Source: Desulfotomaculum nigrificans DSM 574 (GTDB taxonomy: Bacteria; Bacillota; Desulfotomaculia; Desulfotomaculales; Desulfotomaculaceae). From it: 64,000 nucleotides of DNA. The position numbers were made by a program, and so were the translations under genes. How positions within the stretch are numbered: the stretch's first letter is position 1; every line of letters begins with the position of its first letter. Positions 48,053 to 56,967 of the stretch are shown piece after piece. The stretch covers positions 994,257 through 1,058,256 of the forward strand of contig NZ_KI912183.1 in assembly GCF_000189755.2 (NCBI RefSeq). The letters run 5' to 3'. The notes beneath the pieces are model-generated. The model was not told where the DNA came from and did no database searches. It saw nothing but the letters and a program-made list of their open reading frames with translations.

Positions 48053-49411
48053 TTAACGTTTCGGTTCGCCAATTTCAATGGGATTGGCGGGGTTAGCACT
48101 CCATTCATACCAACCGCCGTCATATAACGCAATATTTTTTAAGCCCATGACATCTGCATAAATAAGCACTTCTGCTGCCCTCCAGCCGGTACCACAGTAG
48201 AAGGCCAATCTTTTGTCGGGGGTAATGCCCCATTCTTTCCACATGGCCAGGATTTCATTGGCGTTTCTCATAGTATTATCAATGTTGCGGAAATCCTCCA
48301 AGTGATTGGGGTCGGAACCTGCATGACCCCAAACGGCCCCGGCGGGACGGCCCTTAGCAGTAATGTCACTGTAGCCCGGGGTCTTTCCAATATATTCATC
48401 CCAACTGCGGATATCCACCAGCCTGCTGCCTGCTTTGTCTGCCAGTATTTGCTTGGCCTGGGGCAGGTCAATAATGTAGTTTTTATTGACTGGTACGGTT
48501 GCGCCAAAAGAGGTGCCTGGCTTTTTATTATTCACCTTGGTTTCCTGTTCATAACCGGCTCTTTCCCAGGCACCATAGCCCCCGTTTAAGACCCTGACGT
48601 CCTTTACGCCCATATATTTAAGAATGGCGGCAACCCGGTAGGACCCCATCGGGTCGGTACCGTATAATACCACCGTTGTATCAGTGGTAATGCCATTGTT
48701 AATGGCAAATTGTTCCAGTCTTTTGTCGGAGATACGGTTCCAAATGGGGGGTTCTTCAACTTCATCGGTATTGATATGTACCGCACCTGGAATATGCCCA
48801 TTCAAGTAATCTTTGGATTCTTTGCCCCAGGATACCTCAAAGATTTTATAAGGCTTGCCGTTATTGTTGGTTTTAATCAGATCATTAACCCAGGCTGCCG
48901 GAACAAGCATTTGGTAGTTAGGGTAACTTTCCATTGGTAAATCTTTATCGGCCCATTCTTTGACATTATACAGGTACAGGTTGTTGATACCCTTGGTTTT
49001 CAGATATTGGGCAACTTCTTTTGCATCTTTCCCGTTAGCATCATACAGAACAACATTCTTTTGCGGAGTAATCCCCTTATCCTTAAGAACCTTGTCCAGT
49101 TTTTTATCCTTGTCTTTGTCATCTACCTGCAACCAGTTGGCGGCAAAATCCACCGCTCCCTTAATATGACCGCCCCGGCTAACCCCTTCCAACTTCCAGC
49201 CATTAAAGGCATCATTGATCCTGGTGTCCACAATCACCCAATCTGCCTGGCCAATTTTACCCTGCAACTCCTGAGTGCTGATATTTTTTAGTTCTTCATT
49301 CTTTCCTGAACTTACATTATTACCGGTTGTTTTGCTTTGACAGCCCACCAGAGACAATAGGGCCAGTAACACTACGGCCAAAATTAATATTTGCTTTGCT
49401 TTTGTCCTCAT
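48053..49411 (-). CDS. Three-domain rhodanese-like sulfurtransferase lipoprotein
   Basis: 452 residues from ATG 49411 (SD GGGGAGGGTGTTGT), the start that gives a clean lipoprotein signal with lipobox LVGC (Cys24). Three rhodanese folds follow (about 45-165, 175-300, 315-450). The active loop of the first reads VVLYDANGKDA and of the second VVLYGTDPMGS, both without Cys; only the third has it, LAFYCGTGWRAAE (Cys406). So one catalytic and two non-catalytic domains, anchored outside the membrane. It probably handles sulfane sulfur or thiosulfate. The neighbouring gene encodes the selenium-type relative. Confidence 0.9.
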   Translation of the reverse strand: MRTKAKQILILAVVLLALLSLVGCQSKTTGNNVSSGKNEELKNISTQELQGKIGQADWVIVDTRINDAFNGWKLEGVSRGGHIKGAVDFAANWLQVDDKDKDKKLDKVLKDKGITPQKNVVLYDANGKDAKEVAQYLKTKGINNLYLYNVKEWADKDLPMESYPNYQMLVPAAWVNDLIKTNNNGKPYKIFEVSWGKESKDYLNGHIPGAVHINTDEVEEPPIWNRISDKRLEQFAINNGITTDTTVVLYGTDPMGSYRVAAILKYMGVKDVRVLNGGYGAWERAGYEQETKVNNKKPGTSFGATVPVNKNYIIDLPQAKQILADKAGSRLVDIRSWDEYIGKTPGYSDITAKGRPAGAVWGHAGSDPNHLEDFRNIDNTMRNANEILAMWKEWGITPDKRLAFYCGTGWRAAEVLIYADVMGLKNIALYDGGWYEWSANPANPIEIGEPKR

Positions 49412-49604
49412 ACAACACCCTCCCCTTAATTCCGCATGATTTAATTCCAGAAAGATTATTACATAGAACAAACTGACTTTAAAGGAATATGTGTCATTAT
49501 CATTATTATTGGTATAACTTTTGGTTATATTTTATGCTGTCTGTTGTGCATCGTCCCGGCTTTATAATGACGTAAAGTAATAAAAGTATTTTATTTAGTG
49601 AAAA

Positions 49605-49627
49605 TACACCCGTGAGGTTCACGAGTG
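49605..49627 (-). terminator. Terminator of the Sec-rhodanese gene
   Basis: Stem CACTCGTGA/TCACGGGTG on the minus strand followed by TATTTTC. The T run is modest. It lies 36 bp beyond the TAA at 49663, not beyond the UGA, which agrees with the gene ending at 49663. Confidence 0.6.
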
Positions 49628-49662
49628 CCTATTCAACACCGTTCTGTTATGTAGGGGGAAGC

Positions 49663-50613
49663 TTATTTCTCCATTGGCAGAGAAGGATCAGCTGCCCATT
49701 CATAAATGGAAGCATCATAGTTTCTTACTTTCTCAAAGCCAACTGCTCTGAGGATCGTGGATGCATATCCCGATCTGATACCCATTGTTCAGTAAAGGAC
49801 AAAATCATCTTCCGGTGTCACGCCGGCCTTTTCCTTCATTAAAGCTATAATCTCTTGGGCCGGTTTAGGTGTACCATTCTGATTCAATAATTCCTTCCAC
49901 TCCAGGTGAATGGCACCGGGGATGTGCCCGCCTCTGGCCTCACCGTGGGAAGTGTCCCCATCAAATTCCTTTTTGGTGCGGACGTCTATAATTTTTACCT
50001 TGCCCAGGTTCTTAGCCACATAATCTGTGGTGGCATTATAGCTCTCGTTAAAATCTTTCAAGACTAAACCTGTGGTGGCTGCCACTTTACCCGGCTCTGA
50101 GGTTAGTTCATAACCCATTTCCTTCCACAGGGCCTTACCGCCGTAAAGGAGCTTGGCATTGTTCAGTCCGGCCATTCTCATCTGCCAGACCAGCCGCCCG
50201 TCCGGACCGGGACCTTTTAAGACATCTGAGTATACCACAACAGTTTTCTTGTTATCAATGCCGCGAGCTTCCAGTGCTTTAGTCAGATCCTGTTTGTTAA
50301 AGGCCACACCCCAATTCTTATCTCCGGGTTTACCTTTCACATAGGAGAGATCAGTCCAAGTAACATTAATGGCTCCTGGAATATGCCCGTTGGCGTAAAC
50401 ATTAGGTTGATCTGCATCAATAATAACAACATCTTTGCTGTTCAGTTTGTTTTTTAACTCCTGGGGGGTGATAAAAATATCACTATGTTTATAACCGGTT
50501 AGATCAATTTTCTTGTCTGCGGTCTGTTGCTTGGCCGGACCCAGAGCGGCACAGCCCGTCAGCAACAACGCCAGGGTCATCATGACCAGCAACAGCGGCA
50601 TTATTTTTCGCAT
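49663..50613 (-). CDS. Rhodanese-like lipoprotein with selenocysteine (UGA) at the catalytic position
   Basis: 316 residues if the TGA at 49789-49791 is read as selenocysteine (residue 275), ending at TAA 49663. A lipoprotein signal (LLLTGC) is followed by two rhodanese domains. The first has no catalytic Cys (VVVYSDVLKG). In the second the loop is FVLY-UGA-TMGIRSGYA, exactly where YCxxGxRS is expected, and the 41 codons after UGA give the normal rhodanese end (GFEKVRNYDASIYEW). A SECIS-like hairpin lies just downstream. Start ATG 50613 follows AAGGAGGGTCATGGGG; ATG 50619 is the alternative. Standard gene callers would end it at UGA, hiding the active site. Confidence 0.88.
49753..49775 (-). 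promoter_or_regulatory. bSECIS-like hairpin
   Basis: Minus strand, 13 bases after the UGA: GATCGGGAT (5' arm), loop ATGC, then ATCC, one bulged A, and CGATC. Nine pairs in all, with the apical loop 22 bases from the UGA, within the usual bacterial SECIS distance. The hairpin lies inside the coding sequence, as expected for bacterial SelB recruitment. Confidence 0.75.
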
Positions 50614-50667
50614 CCCCATGACCCTCCTTATTGTTGTTATCAACTAATTTTATTAACTAACCAAAAC

Positions 50668-51375
50668 CTATTTCCCACCCCCAACTTCCATGTTTGTTAA
50701 ATCTTCATCCTTGTCCTGCAGGACTTTTTTAATGATGAAGGCCAAGATAGTTAATGAAATCACACTCAACACCCCAAAGACAAACATCTTGGTGCCCCCA
50801 ACCAGAAGGCCACCTACGTAGGAGTAAATCAAGGTGGCTGGCAACTGACCAAGACCGGTGGCCCAGAAAAATTCCCAAAACCCTATAGAGGTAAGGCCGG
50901 CCGCATAACTTACTGCATCAAAGGACACAAATGGCAAAAGCCTGGCCATCAGGATGGCATATTTGCCATAGCGGGCAAAAAATCGGTCGATCTTTTTTAA
51001 GGCATAAGCACTTACCAGTCTTTCAACCACCGACCTGCCGTAAAAATTGGCAATCCAGAAGCAGAGTGCCGCCCCGGCCATAGCGCTGGACCACGAAAGA
51101 ATGGCCCCCTTCACCCAGCCAAAGAGAGCTGCGTTGGCAAAGGTGATGACAAATGCCGGTAGCGGCGCTGCCAGGGATTGAAAGACCATTAAGAAGAATG
51201 ATACCACCGGCGCCCAGATGCCAAAGGATAATATATAACTCTTCATAGCAGTTATATCCACCATGGAAATAATAAAGACTACTCTTTTAATGGCTGTCTG
51301 CAGGGGTTCTACCCCAAAATAAAGAGCTGCCAGCAGGACAAAGATGCCAATCTTAATCCAAGTCTTCTTATTCAC
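50668..51375 (-). CDS. TVP38/TMEM64 (DedA-like) family membrane protein
   Basis: 235 residues with about six membrane helices and the family core FYGRSVVERLVSA, then FARYGKYAILMARLLPFVSFDAVSYAAGL, split over two segments near 115-155. Members move lipids or unknown substrates, and in selenite or metal contexts have been linked to oxyanion uptake. SD GGGGGTGACC. It is 24 bp downstream of the ArsS-like gene and precedes the Sec-rhodanese gene in one leftward unit. Confidence 0.9.
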   Translation of the reverse strand: MNKKTWIKIGIFVLLAALYFGVEPLQTAIKRVVFIISMVDITAMKSYILSFGIWAPVVSFFLMVFQSLAAPLPAFVITFANAALFGWVKGAILSWSSAMAGAALCFWIANFYGRSVVERLVSAYALKKIDRFFARYGKYAILMARLLPFVSFDAVSYAAGLTSIGFWEFFWATGLGQLPATLIYSYVGGLLVGGTKMFVFGVLSVISLTILAFIIKKVLQDKDEDLTNMEVGGGK

Positions 51376-51399
51376 AGTTAAATGGTCACCCCCGGATTT

Positions 51400-52431
51400 T
51401 TAGGCAATGGCCCCGCCACAGCTGGAACCTGCCCCTGCGGTACAGGCATAGCAGTGATTGTGCAGAACAATCTTACGTTCCTTAAGGGCTGCCAGATCAA
51501 AGTCGGTGATATGTCCCGGCCGGCAGTTTAAGCCAAGCATTTGGTTAAAATCACAATCGTATAGCTGACCGTCCCAACCCACGGAAATCAATTCCCGGCA
51601 CATGACCCGACCGGCTGCGGCAGGGTTAAAGGCCCCGGCCAGGCGCTCCATATAGCGCACCAGGTTGCCCGATTCATACAGAAAAGTCAGGAACCGGCCC
51701 ACCGGCACGTTGGTAATGGTAAAGAGCCGGTTGAAAACAATCCCATAGCGAGCAGCCAGCTCCCGACGGAAATCCGCCTCTATGGCAGGCTGGCTGGGCG
51801 GCAGAAAAGCCCCGCCGGGGTTGTAGACTAAATTTAACTGCAGGGAGGTATCCTTTTGCCCGTAACCCAGGTCATTTAAAGCCTTTAAAACCTCTACTGA
51901 TTTGGCAAAAACCCCTTGGCCCCGTTGTCGGTCGGTATCCTTATCCCGATAATAGGGCAAGGAAGAAATGATTTCGACTCCATGGCTGGCGTAAAATTCC
52001 ATTAGATGGGCCTGCTCCTGGTTGGCCAGCACCGTTAAATTGGTCCGCACCATAACCCGCCGACCTAGCTTCACCGCCTCTTCAATAAACCAGGGCAAAT
52101 GAGGATTTAATTCCGGCGCTCCTCCGGTGATATCCAGAATAGGTATATTGGCCTCCGCCAGCACTCGCAGGCAGTGGGACATAATTTCCCGGCTCATAGA
52201 TTCGGTCCGGTGGGGACCGGCCTCCACGTGACAGTGTTTACAGGATAAATTGCAAACCTTCCCCACGTTCACCTGGAGGGTATTGATGATGCTGCTGGTC
52301 AGGGGATAGTATTCGGTTTCTTTAATTCTTTCCGTAAAGGGTTTAATATCATTAACATCTATAACATCTATAAGGTATTGCAGCTGACGTTGGTAATTGT
52401 TTGCGGTTTTTGAATCCAAACTTTCGTTCAT
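51400..52431 (-). CDS. arsS: ArsS-type radical SAM protein with C-terminal Cys-rich domain
   Basis: 343 residues. Radical SAM motif CNLSCKHCH (Cys60/64/67), GGAPELNPHLP for SAM binding, then the C-terminal Cys-rich part with CDFNQ, LNCRPGH, HNHCYACTAGAGSSCGG. This is the family named rSAM_SeCys/ArsS, some members of which have Sec in the tail; all are Cys here. ArsS makes arsenosugar-type (5'-deoxyadenosyl arsenic) compounds in organisms where it has been studied. The following AhpD-like and glycosyltransferase genes are its standard neighbours. Confidence 0.88.
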   Translation of the reverse strand: MNESLDSKTANNYQRQLQYLIDVIDVNDIKPFTERIKETEYYPLTSSIINTLQVNVGKVCNLSCKHCHVEAGPHRTESMSREIMSHCLRVLAEANIPILDITGGAPELNPHLPWFIEEAVKLGRRVMVRTNLTVLANQEQAHLMEFYASHGVEIISSLPYYRDKDTDRQRGQGVFAKSVEVLKALNDLGYGQKDTSLQLNLVYNPGGAFLPPSQPAIEADFRRELAARYGIVFNRLFTITNVPVGRFLTFLYESGNLVRYMERLAGAFNPAAAGRVMCRELISVGWDGQLYDCDFNQMLGLNCRPGHITDFDLAALKERKIVLHNHCYACTAGAGSSCGGAIA

Positions 52432-52446
52432 CTGTCTCTCCTTTGA

Positions 52447-52779
52447 TTAAAAACCTAATTTGTTAATCACATTTTTCATTTGCACACCGTGTACCAATGT
52501 AGCCCCACCCCGGATGGCAGCCGCAACATGAATGGCCTCGGTCATCTGCTCCGGATTGGACCCCTTTTCCAGACACTCCTGGGTATAGGACTCAATGCAA
52601 TAGGGGCATTGTACAGCGTGGGCCACAGCCAGTGCAATTAAGGCCTTTTCTCGGGCGGTGAGGGCCCCGTCCTGGAATACGGCGCTATAATAGGCCATAA
52701 ATTTTTTCCAGAGTTCAGGTGCTTCTTCACCCATCTTGGCAAATTTAGCCAGATCGGCGGGGTTGTAATAGGTTTCCAT
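52447..52779 (-). CDS. AhpD-like carboxymuconolactone decarboxylase family protein (ArsS-associated)
   Basis: 110 residues with the AhpD core AHAVQCPYCIES, where CPYC (Cys58/61) is the redox pair. The matched family is the arsenosugar-associated peroxidase-like protein found beside ArsS. It should act on peroxides or on the ArsS product; the exact reaction is unknown. 15 bp before arsS, in the same unit. Confidence 0.88.
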   Translation of the reverse strand: METYYNPADLAKFAKMGEEAPELWKKFMAYYSAVFQDGALTAREKALIALAVAHAVQCPYCIESYTQECLEKGSNPEQMTEAIHVAAAIRGGATLVHGVQMKNVINKLGF

Positions 52780-52798
52780 GAATGATCATCCTCTCTTT

Positions 52799-53473
52799 TT
52801 AAAGTATTGGTAACTTGGCCAGGAAATCTGCTGTCCGGTGGGGAAACCAGTCTTCAGCAGTATTCTCTTCCCTTAGGGCAGCCGCCAGTTCCAACAAATC
52901 AGCTGGCCAGTCAATATCCCTGACCGGAGGTAACAAACCACAGGGTAGTTTTAGCCTATGGCAGCAATCAAGGGTTTGCCGGAAAACCTCGCCGGTGCTC
53001 CAGCTGATGTCTTCAAATAAGCTCTGTTCGGGGTATGACAGGCCAATCAGGTAATAGCCGCCGTCCAATGTAGGGCCTAATACTACAGAGTGGTTTTGCA
53101 ACTCTTCCAACGCCTGTTTTAAGTAATAGGGCTGCAAGGTGGGAATGTCGGTGCCGATAATCAATACCGGACCGTAGCGCTGTTTAAACAACCGGCTGGC
53201 CGCGGTGAACATACGCACCCCCAAATCCCCCTCCGGTTGGGTCATTATTTTTATACCCGGACCAACCCTTCCCACCATTTCAGCCACCCGGTGGGCCGGG
53301 GTTAAGGCCAGAAAGACACTGAATTCCTTTATTTTTTGGGTTTTATCCAGGATGTCTAACAAAAATGCCCACTGCAATTGTTCACGCTGTCTCGGAGTTA
53401 ACAACTCCTGCAGGCGGCTTTTGCCCCCGGATGAAGGAATTTTGGCCATGATGACCAGGGCCGGTTTCTGCAT
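52799..53473 (-). CDS. TIGR04282-type (DUF2064) glycosyltransferase
   Basis: 224 residues, nucleotidyl/glycosyltransferase fold: KPALVIMAKIPSSGGKSRL opening, VLIIGTDIPTLQPYYL with the metal DxD-like site, and GPTLDGGYYLIGL. Family TIGR04282 is found with ArsS-type radical SAM genes and is presumed to work in making the modified sugar. First gene of the leftward unit, divergent from the next glycosyltransferase. Confidence 0.88.
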   Translation of the reverse strand: MQKPALVIMAKIPSSGGKSRLQELLTPRQREQLQWAFLLDILDKTQKIKEFSVFLALTPAHRVAEMVGRVGPGIKIMTQPEGDLGVRMFTAASRLFKQRYGPVLIIGTDIPTLQPYYLKQALEELQNHSVVLGPTLDGGYYLIGLSYPEQSLFEDISWSTGEVFRQTLDCCHRLKLPCGLLPPVRDIDWPADLLELAAALREENTAEDWFPHRTADFLAKLPIL

Positions 53474-53539
53474 TCTCTCACCTCAAAATCAACTCTTATA
53501 CTGGCAGGAGTAAAACCAGCCTTAACGAAAAAAGTATAT

Positions 53540-54229
53540 ATGACAAAGACTAAACCTTTAATCAGCGTAATCATTCCCACCTATAATGAGGCCAAAACCA
53601 TCGGTGATACCCTGCAACACTTGCATTCCTGGGGAGACCCCCTGGAAGTTATTGTGGTGGACGGGGGCAGTACAGACGGTACCACCCAACTGGCAGGTAG
53701 CGCTAAGCTCATCTATGCCCCTAAAGGCAGGGCAACCCAAATGAATGCCGGTGCTCGGCAGGCTAAGGGGGATATTTTGCTGTTTCTGCACAGTGATACA
53801 TGCCCACCTTCGGATACTCCAGAGCAACTGCAGCAAGCCCTTAAGGATAACCGGGTGGTGGGTGGTGCCTTTAAAGTAAAAATTGATTACCCAGGACTGT
53901 TCTTTTACCTTGCCTCTCTGGGGTCCAACCTGCGGGCCAAGCTGACCGGCATTTATTTTGGTGACCAGGCTATTTTTGCCCGGCGGGAAATTTTTCATCA
54001 GATAGGCGGTTTCCCCGACATCCCGTTGATGGAAGACTGGCAATTTTCCAGGCGTCTAAATCAGGCAGGTAAAACGGTTCTGTTGCCCGGGCCAGTGTTA
54101 ACCTCTGCTCGCCGTTGGTTGATACACGGCAAATGGAAAACCGCCTGGCTGATGCATAAAATAAAGCTGCTTTATCTCCTGGGGGTTAGCCCGGAGGAAT
54201 TAAGAAGACTTTATACTGACAAACGGTGA
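53540..54229 (+). CDS. TIGR04283-type GT2 glycosyltransferase
   Basis: 229 residues, GT-A fold: SVIIPTYNEAKTIGDTL, VVDGGSTDGT (DxD area), FLHSDTCPP, then PLMEDWQFSRRL acidic site. Family TIGR04283 is the partner of TIGR04282 in ArsS clusters. It starts 67 bp from the divergent TIGR04282 gene, so both share one promoter region. Its 3' end overlaps the opposite-strand gene by 19 bp. Confidence 0.9.
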   Translation: MTKTKPLISVIIPTYNEAKTIGDTLQHLHSWGDPLEVIVVDGGSTDGTTQLAGSAKLIYAPKGRATQMNAGARQAKGDILLFLHSDTCPPSDTPEQLQQALKDNRVVGGAFKVKIDYPGLFFYLASLGSNLRAKLTGIYFGDQAIFARREIFHQIGGFPDIPLMEDWQFSRRLNQAGKTVLLPGPVLTSARRWLIHGKWKTAWLMHKIKLLYLLGVSPEELRRLYTDKR

Positions 54230-54651
54230 TTGTTTTTTACGCTGTCCTGCAGCAGCTCCAGGGTGATGGCAGCGGTGACGGCAGTGATTTGTTTGCACCG
54301 GGCATTCTTAAGGGGCGACAGTTTTTTTCTCAAGGTCCGGCAGCAGGTGGAGCCAAACTCCTGAACAAATCTCCGATGCAGTTCTGCCGCAGCCTTAACC
54401 ACTCTTTTATCAAAGCCCTTGGCCTGAACATCGGCCAGCACGCAGCCAATGGCCAGTACCCCGCCGGACAGGGCACCACAAGTACAACCGGCATTCATGC
54501 CATGGCCAAAGCCCGCTGCCAACCGGCTAATACCATCGGTTGGTTCTCCTAGGAGTTCCAGATTACTGAGGGCCACTGCCTGGGCACAATTTAAGCCCTG
54601 GGCAAAATACTGTTCCGCTTTTTGCATAACTTCTTGATACAAGCCTGTCAT
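54211..54651 (-). CDS. C_GCAxxG_C_C family protein
   Basis: 146 residues from ATG 54651 (GGAGGTTCAT upstream). Cys pattern: GLNCAQAV near 20, GCTCGALSGG (the GCAxxG motif) near 60, IGCVLAD, then STCCRTLRK and ARCKQI. This is the redox/metal C_GCAxxG_C_C family, of unknown reaction and common in anaerobes. It abuts the downstream end of the flippase-like gene and overlaps the opposite-strand GT gene. Confidence 0.88.
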   Translation of the reverse strand: MTGLYQEVMQKAEQYFAQGLNCAQAVALSNLELLGEPTDGISRLAAGFGHGMNAGCTCGALSGGVLAIGCVLADVQAKGFDKRVVKAAAELHRRFVQEFGSTCCRTLRKKLSPLKNARCKQITAVTAAITLELLQDSVKNNHRLSV

Positions 54652-54665
54652 ATGAACCTCCATCA

Positions 54666-55607
54666 TTATTTGCGCGCCAAGATGATAAGACCACCAGCTA
54701 AACTACTTACCGTCACCTGGGTAAAAAATAGCAGGGAACACAGCATGGCCGTGGCCCCATCTACCCCGGCATAACCGTAAAGCAGTACATACATTCCCTC
54801 TCGGACCCCAAGGCCGTTAATGGACAGGGGCAACATAGATACCGCCATAATCACCGGAATATATAAGAAATGTATATAAAGCGGCAGGTGGATGCCAAGT
54901 GCCATAAAAGTAAATACGTTGGATAATACCAGGCACCCCTGGAACAAAAACGACAGCATCAATACTCCGGCCAGTGTACCGGGAAACTGTTTGTAGTCCC
55001 CCATCCGACGTAAAAAGATGCCAATTTTGCCTTCCTCCCGAAAGGGATAACAAAACAGGAAAACCAGCAGCACAAAGCAAAAAATTACCAGTCCTCTCAC
55101 CGACCAAAAAACAACACTGCTGCCCCGGTGGGACACAAAAAGCATGGCCATTGCCGCCGTAAGCCCCAGGGCCAGTGAAGCCACCAGCCGCTCCATCACC
55201 ACCGAAGCCGCCGCTTCCTTGGTTTTTCCTGACTCCCTGGCCACATAGTAAATCCTTAAGGCATCCCCACCGATGCCGGAGGGTAAAAAGTTATTGGCAA
55301 ACAGCCCGGCATAATAAAAAGCCAGTAGCCTGCCTAAAGGGATTTGTATTTGCAATACCGTTAACAGTGGTCGCCACTTCAAGGCGCTGACCACCATACA
55401 CAAATTGACCATAAAAAAGGCCAGCAGCAAGCTGGGCCGGTGGGCATGAACCAGACTATCCTTTAAAGAACCCAACGGAATTTTACTGATAATCCATGCC
55501 AGCAGTCCTATACTGACAGCAAATTTCGGCCAGGAACGCCAGTCGGCCCGAATGGCCGGTGAACTTTGGGTACCTATAGTTTTGTTTTCTATCACCCTTT
55601 TCTCCAA
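54666..55607 (-). CDS. Lysyl-phosphatidylglycerol-synthase-TM / flippase-like membrane protein
   Basis: 313 residues with about eight membrane helices and the UPF0104 signature FANNFLPSGIGGDALRIYYVAR (about 100-121), plus LPLSINGLGVREG near 250. Such proteins move or modify lipids (MprF-like) and often accompany glycosyltransferases. Probably handles a lipid-linked product of the neighbouring GTs. Start TTG 55607 (or GTG 55595). Confidence 0.87.
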   Translation of the reverse strand: MEKRVIENKTIGTQSSPAIRADWRSWPKFAVSIGLLAWIISKIPLGSLKDSLVHAHRPSLLLAFFMVNLCMVVSALKWRPLLTVLQIQIPLGRLLAFYYAGLFANNFLPSGIGGDALRIYYVARESGKTKEAAASVVMERLVASLALGLTAAMAMLFVSHRGSSVVFWSVRGLVIFCFVLLVFLFCYPFREEGKIGIFLRRMGDYKQFPGTLAGVLMLSFLFQGCLVLSNVFTFMALGIHLPLYIHFLYIPVIMAVSMLPLSINGLGVREGMYVLLYGYAGVDGATAMLCSLLFFTQVTVSSLAGGLIILARK

Positions 55608-55976
55608 ATCCTTTCACTTGAGATAAAGGAATTACTATATAATTTATATGACTACATACCAAAAAAACCTTTATGTTAAATATAATAATTAGTTATAGTT
55701 ACGCCACCCTGGTTTAGAAAATAACCTCTGGTTATAAACCGGGGATAAAGGCTGGAGGTATAAAAATTAGATGATAAAGAAAAAACAGCAGTGGGAGGTT
55801 AATCAATCCCGCTGCTGTTTTAGCTGAAATTACCAGTTCAGTCCACTTGAAGTGGTAGCCGGGTTTAAAAGAATCAGATCCGGACTAAGGTTAGTTAGCC
55901 CCACTGTTTGTGCATCTCTAATAACTCAAGAGAACGCGAAGCGGCGGCCGTAGCCTTTATCCTTTTACCGTGAGGG
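55608..55976. other. Intergenic region with terminator-type hairpin
   Basis: 369 bp. It holds an AT-rich stretch, a hairpin (55783-55820) and, at 55830-55976, GC-richer sequence with short, gene-like frames but no start with an SD. No tRNA or other RNA could be assigned. Confidence 0.5.
55776..55820 (-). terminator. Terminator-like hairpin downstream of arsR
   Basis: Stem AAACAGCAG-CGGG/CCC-CTGCTGTTT; on the minus strand TTTTCTTT follows. It would stop transcription from arsR. Confidence 0.75.
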
Positions 55977-56303
55977 CTAGTCTTGGGTCATGCTGCCAAA
56001 GGTTTTCATGGTCTCGCTGGCCTGCAGCACCAGTATTTTATCCGCAACCTCTAAAAGTTCAATGATCTCAGGATATTTAATACTGTAGATTACCCGCAAG
56101 CCTTCTTTTCTACTTTGCAGAATATCCTGCCTTTTTAAGATAGCCAGATGTTGGGAAGTATTGGCCTGTTCCACATTTAATGCTTCAAAGATATCACAGA
56201 CACAATGTTCACCGTCTTTTAACAGTTCCAATATACGAATTCGGGTGGGATGGGCAATAGCTTTAAACATATCTGCTTTTAACTGGGATAATCTTTCGTT
56301 CAT
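55977..56303 (-). CDS. ArsR/SmtB-family transcriptional regulator
   Basis: 108 residues from ATG 56303 (TTG 56309 is an alternative). Winged-helix repressor: AIAHPTRIRILELL, then EHCVCDIFEAL with a CVC pair like the arsenite/metal site of ArsR, and NTSQHLAILKR recognition helix. It probably senses arsenite or a related metal(loid) and controls the arsenosugar/Sec cluster whose genes lie downstream on this strand. Confidence 0.92.
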   Translation of the reverse strand: MNERLSQLKADMFKAIAHPTRIRILELLKDGEHCVCDIFEALNVEQANTSQHLAILKRQDILQSRKEGLRVIYSIKYPEIIELLEVADKILVLQASETMKTFGSMTQD

Positions 56304-56475
56304 TTGCAATCACCAACCTAATTATTCTAATATAATTATATATCCAATTTTGTAAAAAAGCTATCCCATAGACATCCCTGAACTAACAATCCTGCTTTCG
56401 TAGAAAAAATATGCCCAAGCCATTTTCTATTATATAAGTCTATGTAATCAGTGGTTAGTACTTTAACCAAATAGT

Positions 56476-56517
56476 AAAACCCGGGAGAGTACGTTATTCC
56501 GTGCTCTTCCGGGTTTT
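56476..56517. terminator. Terminator of the CopZ-like gene
   Basis: Stem AAAACCCGG-AGAG/CTCT-CCGGGTTTT, 45 bp past the CopZ-like gene on the minus strand. Confidence 0.75.
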
Positions 56518-56562
56518 CATTTTGTTGGCCCTGGCAATCACCGATTGCACCGCAGGCCTGCA

Positions 56563-56967
56563 TCAAGTGCCGGCGGGATTTTTAGTTAGGCACTCCCTTC
56601 CGGTATTGGCCCCGGTATGACGCTGGATGTCCTGCAGGTTATGACAGCAGCCCATTACTGTAAGATGGTCCATGATATCCTTGGCAGAAACCCCTTTGCA
56701 ATAACATACCGGCACTTCCGGGTCTGTTTCCTTAAACCAAACTTTTTCCTTTAAAGCGTCCTTTTTCAGGATCTCCGGCCCGAAGTACACTACCTCGCAG
56801 GTCTCCGAAAGGCAAAGATGAAATCCCTCCGGCGAGCCGGGCTGATGGCTTTCTTTTACTATATTTTTAATGGTCGCGGGTTTTACGGGTTTTCCCGGCG
56901 CACCGCAAACCGGACAGCGGACGGCAGAAACCTTCGGGTCGACCCCACAGACTAAATCGGTAATCAT
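56563..56967 (-). CDS. CopZ-type Fe-S metallochaperone-like protein
   Basis: 134 residues. The N-terminal part has a zinc site, RCPVCGAPGKPV (about 17-28) with HLCLSETCEVVYFG; the C-terminal part (about 88-134) is a BFD-like [2Fe-2S] domain: CYCKGVSAKDIM, MGCCHNL, and TGRECLTKNPAG. This matches the N-terminal half of Archaeoglobus CopZ, without its copper-binding HMA domain. Likely a redox protein that delivers or reduces a metal. SD AGAGGAGG before ATG 56967. Confidence 0.85.
   Translation of the reverse strand: MITDLVCGVDPKVSAVRCPVCGAPGKPVKPATIKNIVKESHQPGSPEGFHLCLSETCEVVYFGPEILKKDALKEKVWFKETDPEVPVCYCKGVSAKDIMDHLTVMGCCHNLQDIQRHTGANTGRECLTKNPAGT

What the first reader, a model, noticed from the sequence alone, without database searches (positions are those of the whole stretch)
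49663..50613. Selenocysteine rhodanese: UGA at the catalytic Cys, with SECIS-like hairpin
Seen: the reading frame of a two-domain rhodanese lipoprotein meets UGA exactly where the catalytic Cys of the second domain belongs (FVLY-UGA-TMGIRSG), and continues for 41 codons with a normal rhodanese C terminus. A nine-pair hairpin with a 4-base loop (49753-49775) starts 13 bases after the UGA. Known: Sec commonly replaces catalytic Cys, and bacterial SECIS elements lie at this distance. Inference: a secreted, membrane-anchored Sec sulfurtransferase, beside an ArsS (rSAM_SeCys) cluster. A standard caller would stop at UGA and lose the active site.
Basis: partly seen in the sequence, partly recalled or inferred. 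Interest (0 to 1): 0.9.

Follow-up and report, generated by a model that had tools for sequence, protein, structure and literature searches.

The report
Selenocysteine rhodanese lipoprotein with two-hairpin SECIS
A bacterial surface sulfur-transfer enzyme reads a stop codon as the rare amino acid selenocysteine at its active site; close relatives in four bacterial phyla do the same, and the RNA signal after the codon is an unusual pair of hairpins rather than the single one first reported.

Summary
The 316-codon frame 49663-50613 (-) meets UGA (49789-49791) exactly at the catalytic Cys of a two-domain rhodanese lipoprotein and continues 41 codons to a normal C terminus. The genome has selA, selB, selC and selD, and UGA-containing selD and formate dehydrogenases. 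Homologues settle it: 51 aligned homologue loci (some the same gene fetched twice) have UGA in this column and 33 have Cys, none a random stop. The UGA forms make one clade (100/100) spanning four phyla. Codons after UGA are frozen beyond protein need, only in the UGA clade. One correction: the named hairpin (49753-49775) is conserved, but a second (49733-49751) is paired in 99.6% of cells and has the published SelB-type loop (N-G-[G/U]-N) in 40 of 40, which the first lacks. Hairpin 2 lies 44 nt from UGA, beyond the published 16-37 nt unless hairpin 1 is folded. The constant neighbour is a YdjZ-like DedA/VTT membrane protein (32 of 36 loci), not ArsS. Most likely an extracytoplasmic sulfurtransferase working through a selenenyl sulfide; substrate unknown. 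Selenocysteine rhodaneses were predicted before, so this is a variant of a known kind.

The parts
49663..50613 (-). Sec-rhodanese lipoprotein gene, 316 aa with Sec at residue 275, TAA stop at 49663-49665
   Evidence: Translation with TGA=U; Pfam Rhodanese, two stretches, 124 bits; PDB profile hits to two-domain thiosulfate sulfurtransferases, E down to 3e-37; AlphaFold pLDDT 86 and Foldseek E 8e-23 to thiosulfate sulfurtransferases
49789..49791 (-). UGA (Sec) codon at the catalytic Cys position
   Evidence: TGA 51, TGC 23, TGT 10 at this column in homologue loci; directly after strand 271-274 and before helix 279-290
49753..49775 (-).
   Evidence: 91.4% of cells paired, 11 double-sided changes, 0 of 500 shuffles as high; 8.22 of 9 pairs against 5.39 sd 0.21 under synonymous randomisation; no G in the first two loop positions in 39 of 40
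49733..49751 (-). Hairpin 2, 7 pairs, loop AGUUG; the likelier SelB-binding SECIS hairpin
   Evidence: 99.6% of cells paired, one compensatory double change in L066; loop N-G-[G/U]-N in 40 of 40 Sec and 0 of 19 Cys homologues; perfect in 39 of 40 against 2.9 expected
50545..50613 (-). Signal peptide with lipobox LLLTGC, lipidated Cys21
   Evidence: Sequence; a lipobox-like motif matched in 40 of 44 Sec homologues
50668..51375 (-). YdjZ-like DedA/VTT membrane protein, upstream partner gene
   Evidence: Pfam VTT_dom 98 bits; 50% identical to E. coli YdjZ, 9e-72; a YdjZ-like gene next to the Sec rhodanese in 32 of 36 loci with upstream sequence
48053..49411 (-). Three-domain Cys rhodanese lipoprotein, YnjE homologue (all-Cys paralogue downstream)
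   Evidence: Pfam Rhodanese, 3 stretches; 42% identical to E. coli YnjE, 1e-109; the listed ORF runs to a TTG at 49471, the start is taken here at the ATG at 49411
49606..49628 (-). Terminator-like hairpin after the Sec gene
   Evidence: Consensus scan; not evidence of function

Best explanation
A genuine selenoprotein: an extracytoplasmic, lipid-anchored two-domain thiosulfate-sulfurtransferase-type rhodanese whose catalytic residue is Sec. While the ribosome waits at UGA, SelB with Sec-tRNA is recruited by the downstream RNA, most likely through hairpin 2, which is brought within normal reach when hairpin 1 folds. Domain 1 lacks the catalytic Cys; the Sec in domain 2 (U-T-M-G-I-R loop) takes a sulfane sulfur (or selenium) atom from a donor as a selenenyl sulfide (Se-S) and passes it to a thiol acceptor, probably together with the membrane-embedded YdjZ-like partner. 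Shown by comparison: Sec decoding and RNA structure under selection. Inferred: which hairpin SelB binds, the Se-S chemistry, and a role in external sulfane-sulfur or chalcogen handling. Substrate and acceptor are unknown.
For: sel genes: selA 624 bits, selB next to it, tRNA-Sec with anticodon TCA, selD which itself has a UGA, and three formate dehydrogenase genes with UGA and standard GGUC-loop SECIS. Same-column TGA in 9 other genomes of 113 in the order (10 genes), in 38 of the 41 loci of a genome scan and in 2 more genomes in the phylum sample. Sec clade 100/100, 38 rows, no Cys inside. Codon identity 0.68 in codons +1 to +20, against a highest upstream window of 0.51 and 0.36 in Cys homologues. 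Synonymous randomisation: mean MFE -16.8 against -7.45 sd 0.35 kcal/mol. Fold and active-site position. YdjZ-like neighbour.
Against: No protein or selenium data. selB is present in Cys-form genomes too, so its presence does not discriminate. None of the 8 other species held for this genus has the gene, so it is a sporadic, probably transferred gene. Neither hairpin alone meets all published bSECIS rules (hairpin 1: no loop G; hairpin 2: 44 nt from UGA, against 16-37; PMC13188914). The genome scan used a profile of Sec forms, which favours Sec homologues, and the 40 sequences are related. E. coli YnjE, the nearest studied counterpart by gene context, has poor activity with thiosulfate and mercaptopyruvate (PMC10215317).
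Confidence: 0.93

Rival explanations
1. Ordinary stop: a truncated rhodanese lipoprotein of 274 aa followed by decaying former coding sequence.
For: A standard gene caller stops here; species of the same genus lack the gene.
Against: UGA/Cys interchange at one column in 84 loci and no TAA, TAG or other sense codon; the 41 downstream residues are among the most conserved of the protein; RNA constraint.
Confidence: 0.02
2. Sec is inserted, but the SECIS is hairpin 1, and hairpin 2 serves something else (mRNA stability, translation pausing, or a lower stem).
For: Hairpin 1 lies in the standard 16-37 nt range and covaries.
Against: No G in the first two loop positions in 39 of 40, a rule the genome's own fdhA SECIS elements keep; hairpin 2 is better conserved and has the rule-conforming loop in 40 of 40.
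Confidence: 0.3
3. UGA is read through by another route (near-cognate Trp or Cys tRNA, or a general UGA reassignment).
For: Read-through would also give a full-length protein; no direct tool result favours it.
Against: A full Sec apparatus with tRNA-Sec is present; a TGA=Trp code would not explain exact swapping with the catalytic Cys; the downstream hairpins are specific to the UGA clade.
Confidence: 0.02
4. The Sec rhodanese is a dedicated part of the arsenosugar (ArsS, rSAM/selenodomain) cluster.
For: ArsS, TIGR04169, TIGR04282 and TIGR04283 lie beside it in the window; the glycosyltransferase pair recurs near it in 13 loci.
Against: ArsS itself is clustered in only 5 loci; Peptoclostridium, Tepidibacter, Clostridium, Romboutsia and fusobacterial loci lack the cluster but most keep the YdjZ-like gene.
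Confidence: 0.2

Closest known systems
Predicted Sec-containing rhodanese-related sulfurtransferase COG2897 (Sargasso Sea, PMC1088965; 'form 4', UxxG, in PMC13188914)
   Same: COG2897-type rhodanese with Sec in the UxxG motif
   Different: Reported from marine metagenomes, 3 sequences; lipoprotein nature, YdjZ partner and two-hairpin SECIS are not mentioned in the passages read; the sequences could not be fetched, so identity or distinctness is untested
Two-domain thiosulfate sulfurtransferases (CysA2/CysA3, Thermus 1uar, bovine TST)
   Same: Fold and active-site position
   Different: Cys instead of Sec; not part of a UGA-recoded lipoprotein clade
E. coli YnjE in ydjXYZ-ynjABCDE
   Same: Exported rhodanese near a YdjZ-type DedA protein; two Bacillota loci also carry YnjB-, YnjD- and YnjF-like genes
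   Different: YnjE has three domains and Cys; the Sec protein is only 22-30% identical to it; the window has a separate YnjE homologue next door
ExtH, rhodanese of the Geobacter selenite/tellurite reduction cluster (NF040901)
   Same: Rhodanese-like protein with weak similarity (55.5 bits)
   Different: Far below the model's cut-off of 200 bits; no ext-type cytochrome genes seen among the neighbours read here

Membership tests
Bacterial selenoprotein | selA, selB, selC and selD in the genome | tested here: met
Bacterial selenoprotein | In-frame UGA aligned to a catalytic Cys of homologues, conserved downstream | tested here: met
Bacterial selenoprotein | Sec present in the purified protein | not testable with these tools
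   Needs 75Se labelling or mass spectrometry
Canonical bSECIS (model as given in PMC13188914) | Stem of 4-16 pairs and small loop, MFE at most -7.5 kcal/mol | tested here: inconclusive
   Window hairpin 1 -9.3 (passes), hairpin 2 -7.1 (just misses; mean of 40 is -8.5)
Canonical bSECIS (model as given in PMC13188914) | G in the first two loop positions | tested here: inconclusive
   Hairpin 1 fails in 39 of 40; hairpin 2 passes in 40 of 40
Canonical bSECIS (model as given in PMC13188914) | 16-37 nt between UGA and the apical loop | tested here: inconclusive
   Hairpin 1 22 nt (passes); hairpin 2 44 nt (fails; about 21 nt if hairpin 1 is folded and not counted); positions
Two-domain rhodanese (TST/COG2897 type) | Two rhodanese domains with catalytic residue in the second | tested here: met
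Two-domain rhodanese (TST/COG2897 type) | Sulfurtransferase activity | not testable with these tools
   No assay
Known Sec-rhodanese forms 1-5 (PMC13188914) | Belongs to one of the described sequence groups | tested here: inconclusive
   NCBIfam NF041203 and NF045694 (forms 3 and 5) far below cut-off; the sequences given for forms 1, 2 and 4 could not be fetched

The most novel reading that the evidence does not exclude
The gene uses a distinct two-hairpin class of bacterial SECIS: a first hairpin without the SelB loop signature folds up and so carries a SelB-binding hairpin 44 nt from the UGA into working distance, in a clade of obligately Sec-containing, surface-anchored rhodaneses.
Probability: 0.45. 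Interest if true: 0.65.

Novelty: new variant of a known kind. Interest (0 to 1): 0.52.

Why it matters
A standard gene caller cuts the active site off this gene, and no curated NCBIfam model reaches its cut-off for the full protein, so it is likely to be annotated as a truncated rhodanese. The clade gives a clean case in which an extracytoplasmic sulfurtransferase appears to use Sec without exception. It also suggests that current bSECIS rules (one hairpin, 16-37 nt) miss a two-hairpin arrangement, a claim that silent mutations can test directly. The conserved YdjZ partner links the poorly understood E. coli ydjXYZ-ynjABCDE genes to chalcogen chemistry as a testable idea.

Tried and rejected
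Rfam found no SECIS or other RNA family in 49000-51500 above its gathering score. Single-sequence folding of the region is not significant. selB presence does not separate Sec-form from Cys-form genomes. An outer stem (columns 5-10 with 47-52 of A3), which would compete with hairpin 2, is 93.5% paired but none of its pairs has a double-sided change, so it stays undecided. L071 (Deltaproteobacteria MAG) was set aside: a different four-domain rhodanese whose aligned domain has Cys. L030/L068 (the same MAG contig) loses the frame before the site and L074 is only a short match. A search centred on the Thermodesulfobacteriota locus failed for lack of a handle. Haft and Gwadz 2023 is not held.

Full report
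Anatomy. On the minus strand, 50613-49663, lies a 316-codon frame: signal peptide with lipobox LLLTGC, two rhodanese domains, UGA at codon 275 (49789-49791), then 41 codons and TAA. A standard ORF ends at the UGA. Pfam finds two rhodanese stretches. A profile search of the PDB aligns the UGA column with the catalytic Cys of two-domain thiosulfate sulfurtransferases. The AlphaFold model (pLDDT 86) puts residue 275 between strand 271-274 and helix 279-290, and Foldseek returns thiosulfate sulfurtransferases first. So the read-through part supplies the active-site loop, the following helix and the last strand.

Machinery. selA (624 bits) with selB directly after it, tRNA-Sec with anticodon TCA, and selD, itself with a UGA, are present. 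Three formate dehydrogenase alpha genes carry UGA followed by hairpins with the classical GGUC loop, so this genome decodes Sec in the ordinary way.

Homologues. In 113 genomes of the order, 10 homologous genes in 9 genomes other than the window's have one TGA in the frame; more distant ones have none. A scan of GTDB genomes with a profile of the Sec forms gave 41 loci, and a phylum sample gave two more genomes with TGA. At the catalytic column the 84 aligned loci read TGA 51, TGC 23, TGT 10, nothing else. Several loci hold the same gene found by two searches; the TGA set has 40 distinct downstream sequences. The tree of 70 proteins puts all 38 Sec rows in one clade, 100/100, with no Cys inside; it spans Bacillota, Actinomycetota, Fusobacteriota and Thermodesulfobacteriota. 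Bias: the GTDB scan used a Sec profile, though the order and phylum searches used the single protein with Cys in place of Sec. None of the 8 other species held for the genus has the gene, so horizontal transfer is likely.

RNA element. If the downstream RNA matters, synonymous positions should be frozen there and only in the Sec clade. They are: codon identity among same-residue pairs is 0.68 in codons +1 to +20, against a mean of 0.41 and a maximum of 0.51 in upstream windows; Cys homologues give 0.36 at the same place. Two hairpins carry the signal. Hairpin 2 (columns 41-59; window 49733-49751) has 99.6% of cells paired and one compensatory double change, in L066. When synonymous codons are redrawn from each gene's own usage, hairpin 1 falls from 8.22 to 5.39 of 9 pairs, hairpin 2 from 6.97 to 5.15 of 7, perfect hairpin 2 from 39 to 2.9 of 40 sequences, and the mean energy from -16.8 to -7.45 kcal/mol with sd 0.35. 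Cys homologues show neither on average (4.37 of 9 and 3.95 of 7). The sequences are related, so these are not independent trials, but synonymous sites elsewhere in the same genes have drifted far.

Which hairpin is the SECIS. The published model asks for a G in the first two loop positions, mostly N-G-[G/U]-N, and 16-37 nt between UGA and loop; the same review says some selenoprotein genes do not fit (PMC13188914). Hairpin 1 has the distance (22 nt) but not the G (39 of 40 fail). Hairpin 2 has the loop in 40 of 40, even where the encoded Val became Gly, but sits at 44 nt; its energy in the window copy, -7.1, just misses the -7.5 limit. If hairpin 1 is folded and skipped, the distance is about 21 nt. 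The reading favoured here, an inference, is that hairpin 2 binds SelB and hairpin 1 is the spacer that makes it reachable. A competing outer stem cannot be excluded.

Context. The gene directly upstream is a DedA/VTT protein 50% identical to E. coli YdjZ; a YdjZ-like gene adjoins the Sec gene in 32 of the 36 loci with upstream sequence, often overlapping. Downstream in the window lies a Cys-form three-domain lipoprotein, 42% identical to E. coli YnjE. Acidaminobacter and Tepidibacter loci add genes like YnjB, YnjD and YnjF (and YnjC in Tepidibacter), which resembles E. coli ydjXYZ-ynjABCDEF, of which ydjXYZ-ynjABCD and ynjE are activated by FNR (PMC3688515). The ArsS/arsenosugar genes beside it in the window accompany only part of the clade. 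COG0398 DedA proteins, among which that paper models YdjZ, have been proposed to be phospholipid scramblases (PMC10127716), so the meaning of the pairing is open.

Function. Rhodaneses pass sulfane sulfur through a persulfide on the catalytic Cys (established chemistry). With Sec this would be a selenenyl sulfide. The exported location and the YdjZ partner suggest handling of external sulfane sulfur or selenium, but no substrate is supported by evidence; E. coli YnjE itself is poor with thiosulfate and mercaptopyruvate (PMC10215317).

Known or new. Sec-containing rhodaneses, including a COG2897 group, have been predicted since 2005 (PMC1088965; PMC9312934; PMC13188914). None of the passages read describes the lipoprotein nature, the YdjZ pairing or two hairpins, and no NCBIfam model reaches its cut-off for this protein, but the described reference sequences could not be aligned. 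I therefore call it a new variant of a known kind.

Noticed in passing
window 56497-56967 (-), UGA at 56563-56565: A second unrecognised selenoprotein gene: CopZ-like zinc/2Fe-2S protein (zf_CopZ) with UGA in NPAGT-U-C where the homologue L041:1000-1551 has NPLGVCC. In 113 genomes of the order, 23 further homologous genes carry a TGA in the frame and three distant ones do not; NCBIfam CopZ_Nterm_CU matches below cut-off.
   Followed up: partly
L071 (Deltaproteobacteria MAG), match from 6001: A four-domain rhodanese lipoprotein with Cys in the second domain's active site and UGA at the catalytic position of the fourth (FYULIGIRSS), followed by a hairpin.
   Followed up: no
L041 and L051: Gram-positive gene clusters resembling E. 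coli ydjXYZ-ynjABCDEF with the Sec rhodanese beside them; the function of these E. coli genes appears to be open.
   Followed up: partly
window 51400-56309: Nearly complete arsenosugar-type gene set (ArsS, TIGR04169, TIGR04282, TIGR04283, C-GCAxxG-C-C protein, flippase-like protein, ArsR-type regulator), with ArsS in Cys form.
   Followed up: partly
L030/L068 (G021 contig C72): A copy of the Sec rhodanese whose frame is lost before the UGA site: a frameshift or assembly error, or a decaying copy.
   Followed up: no
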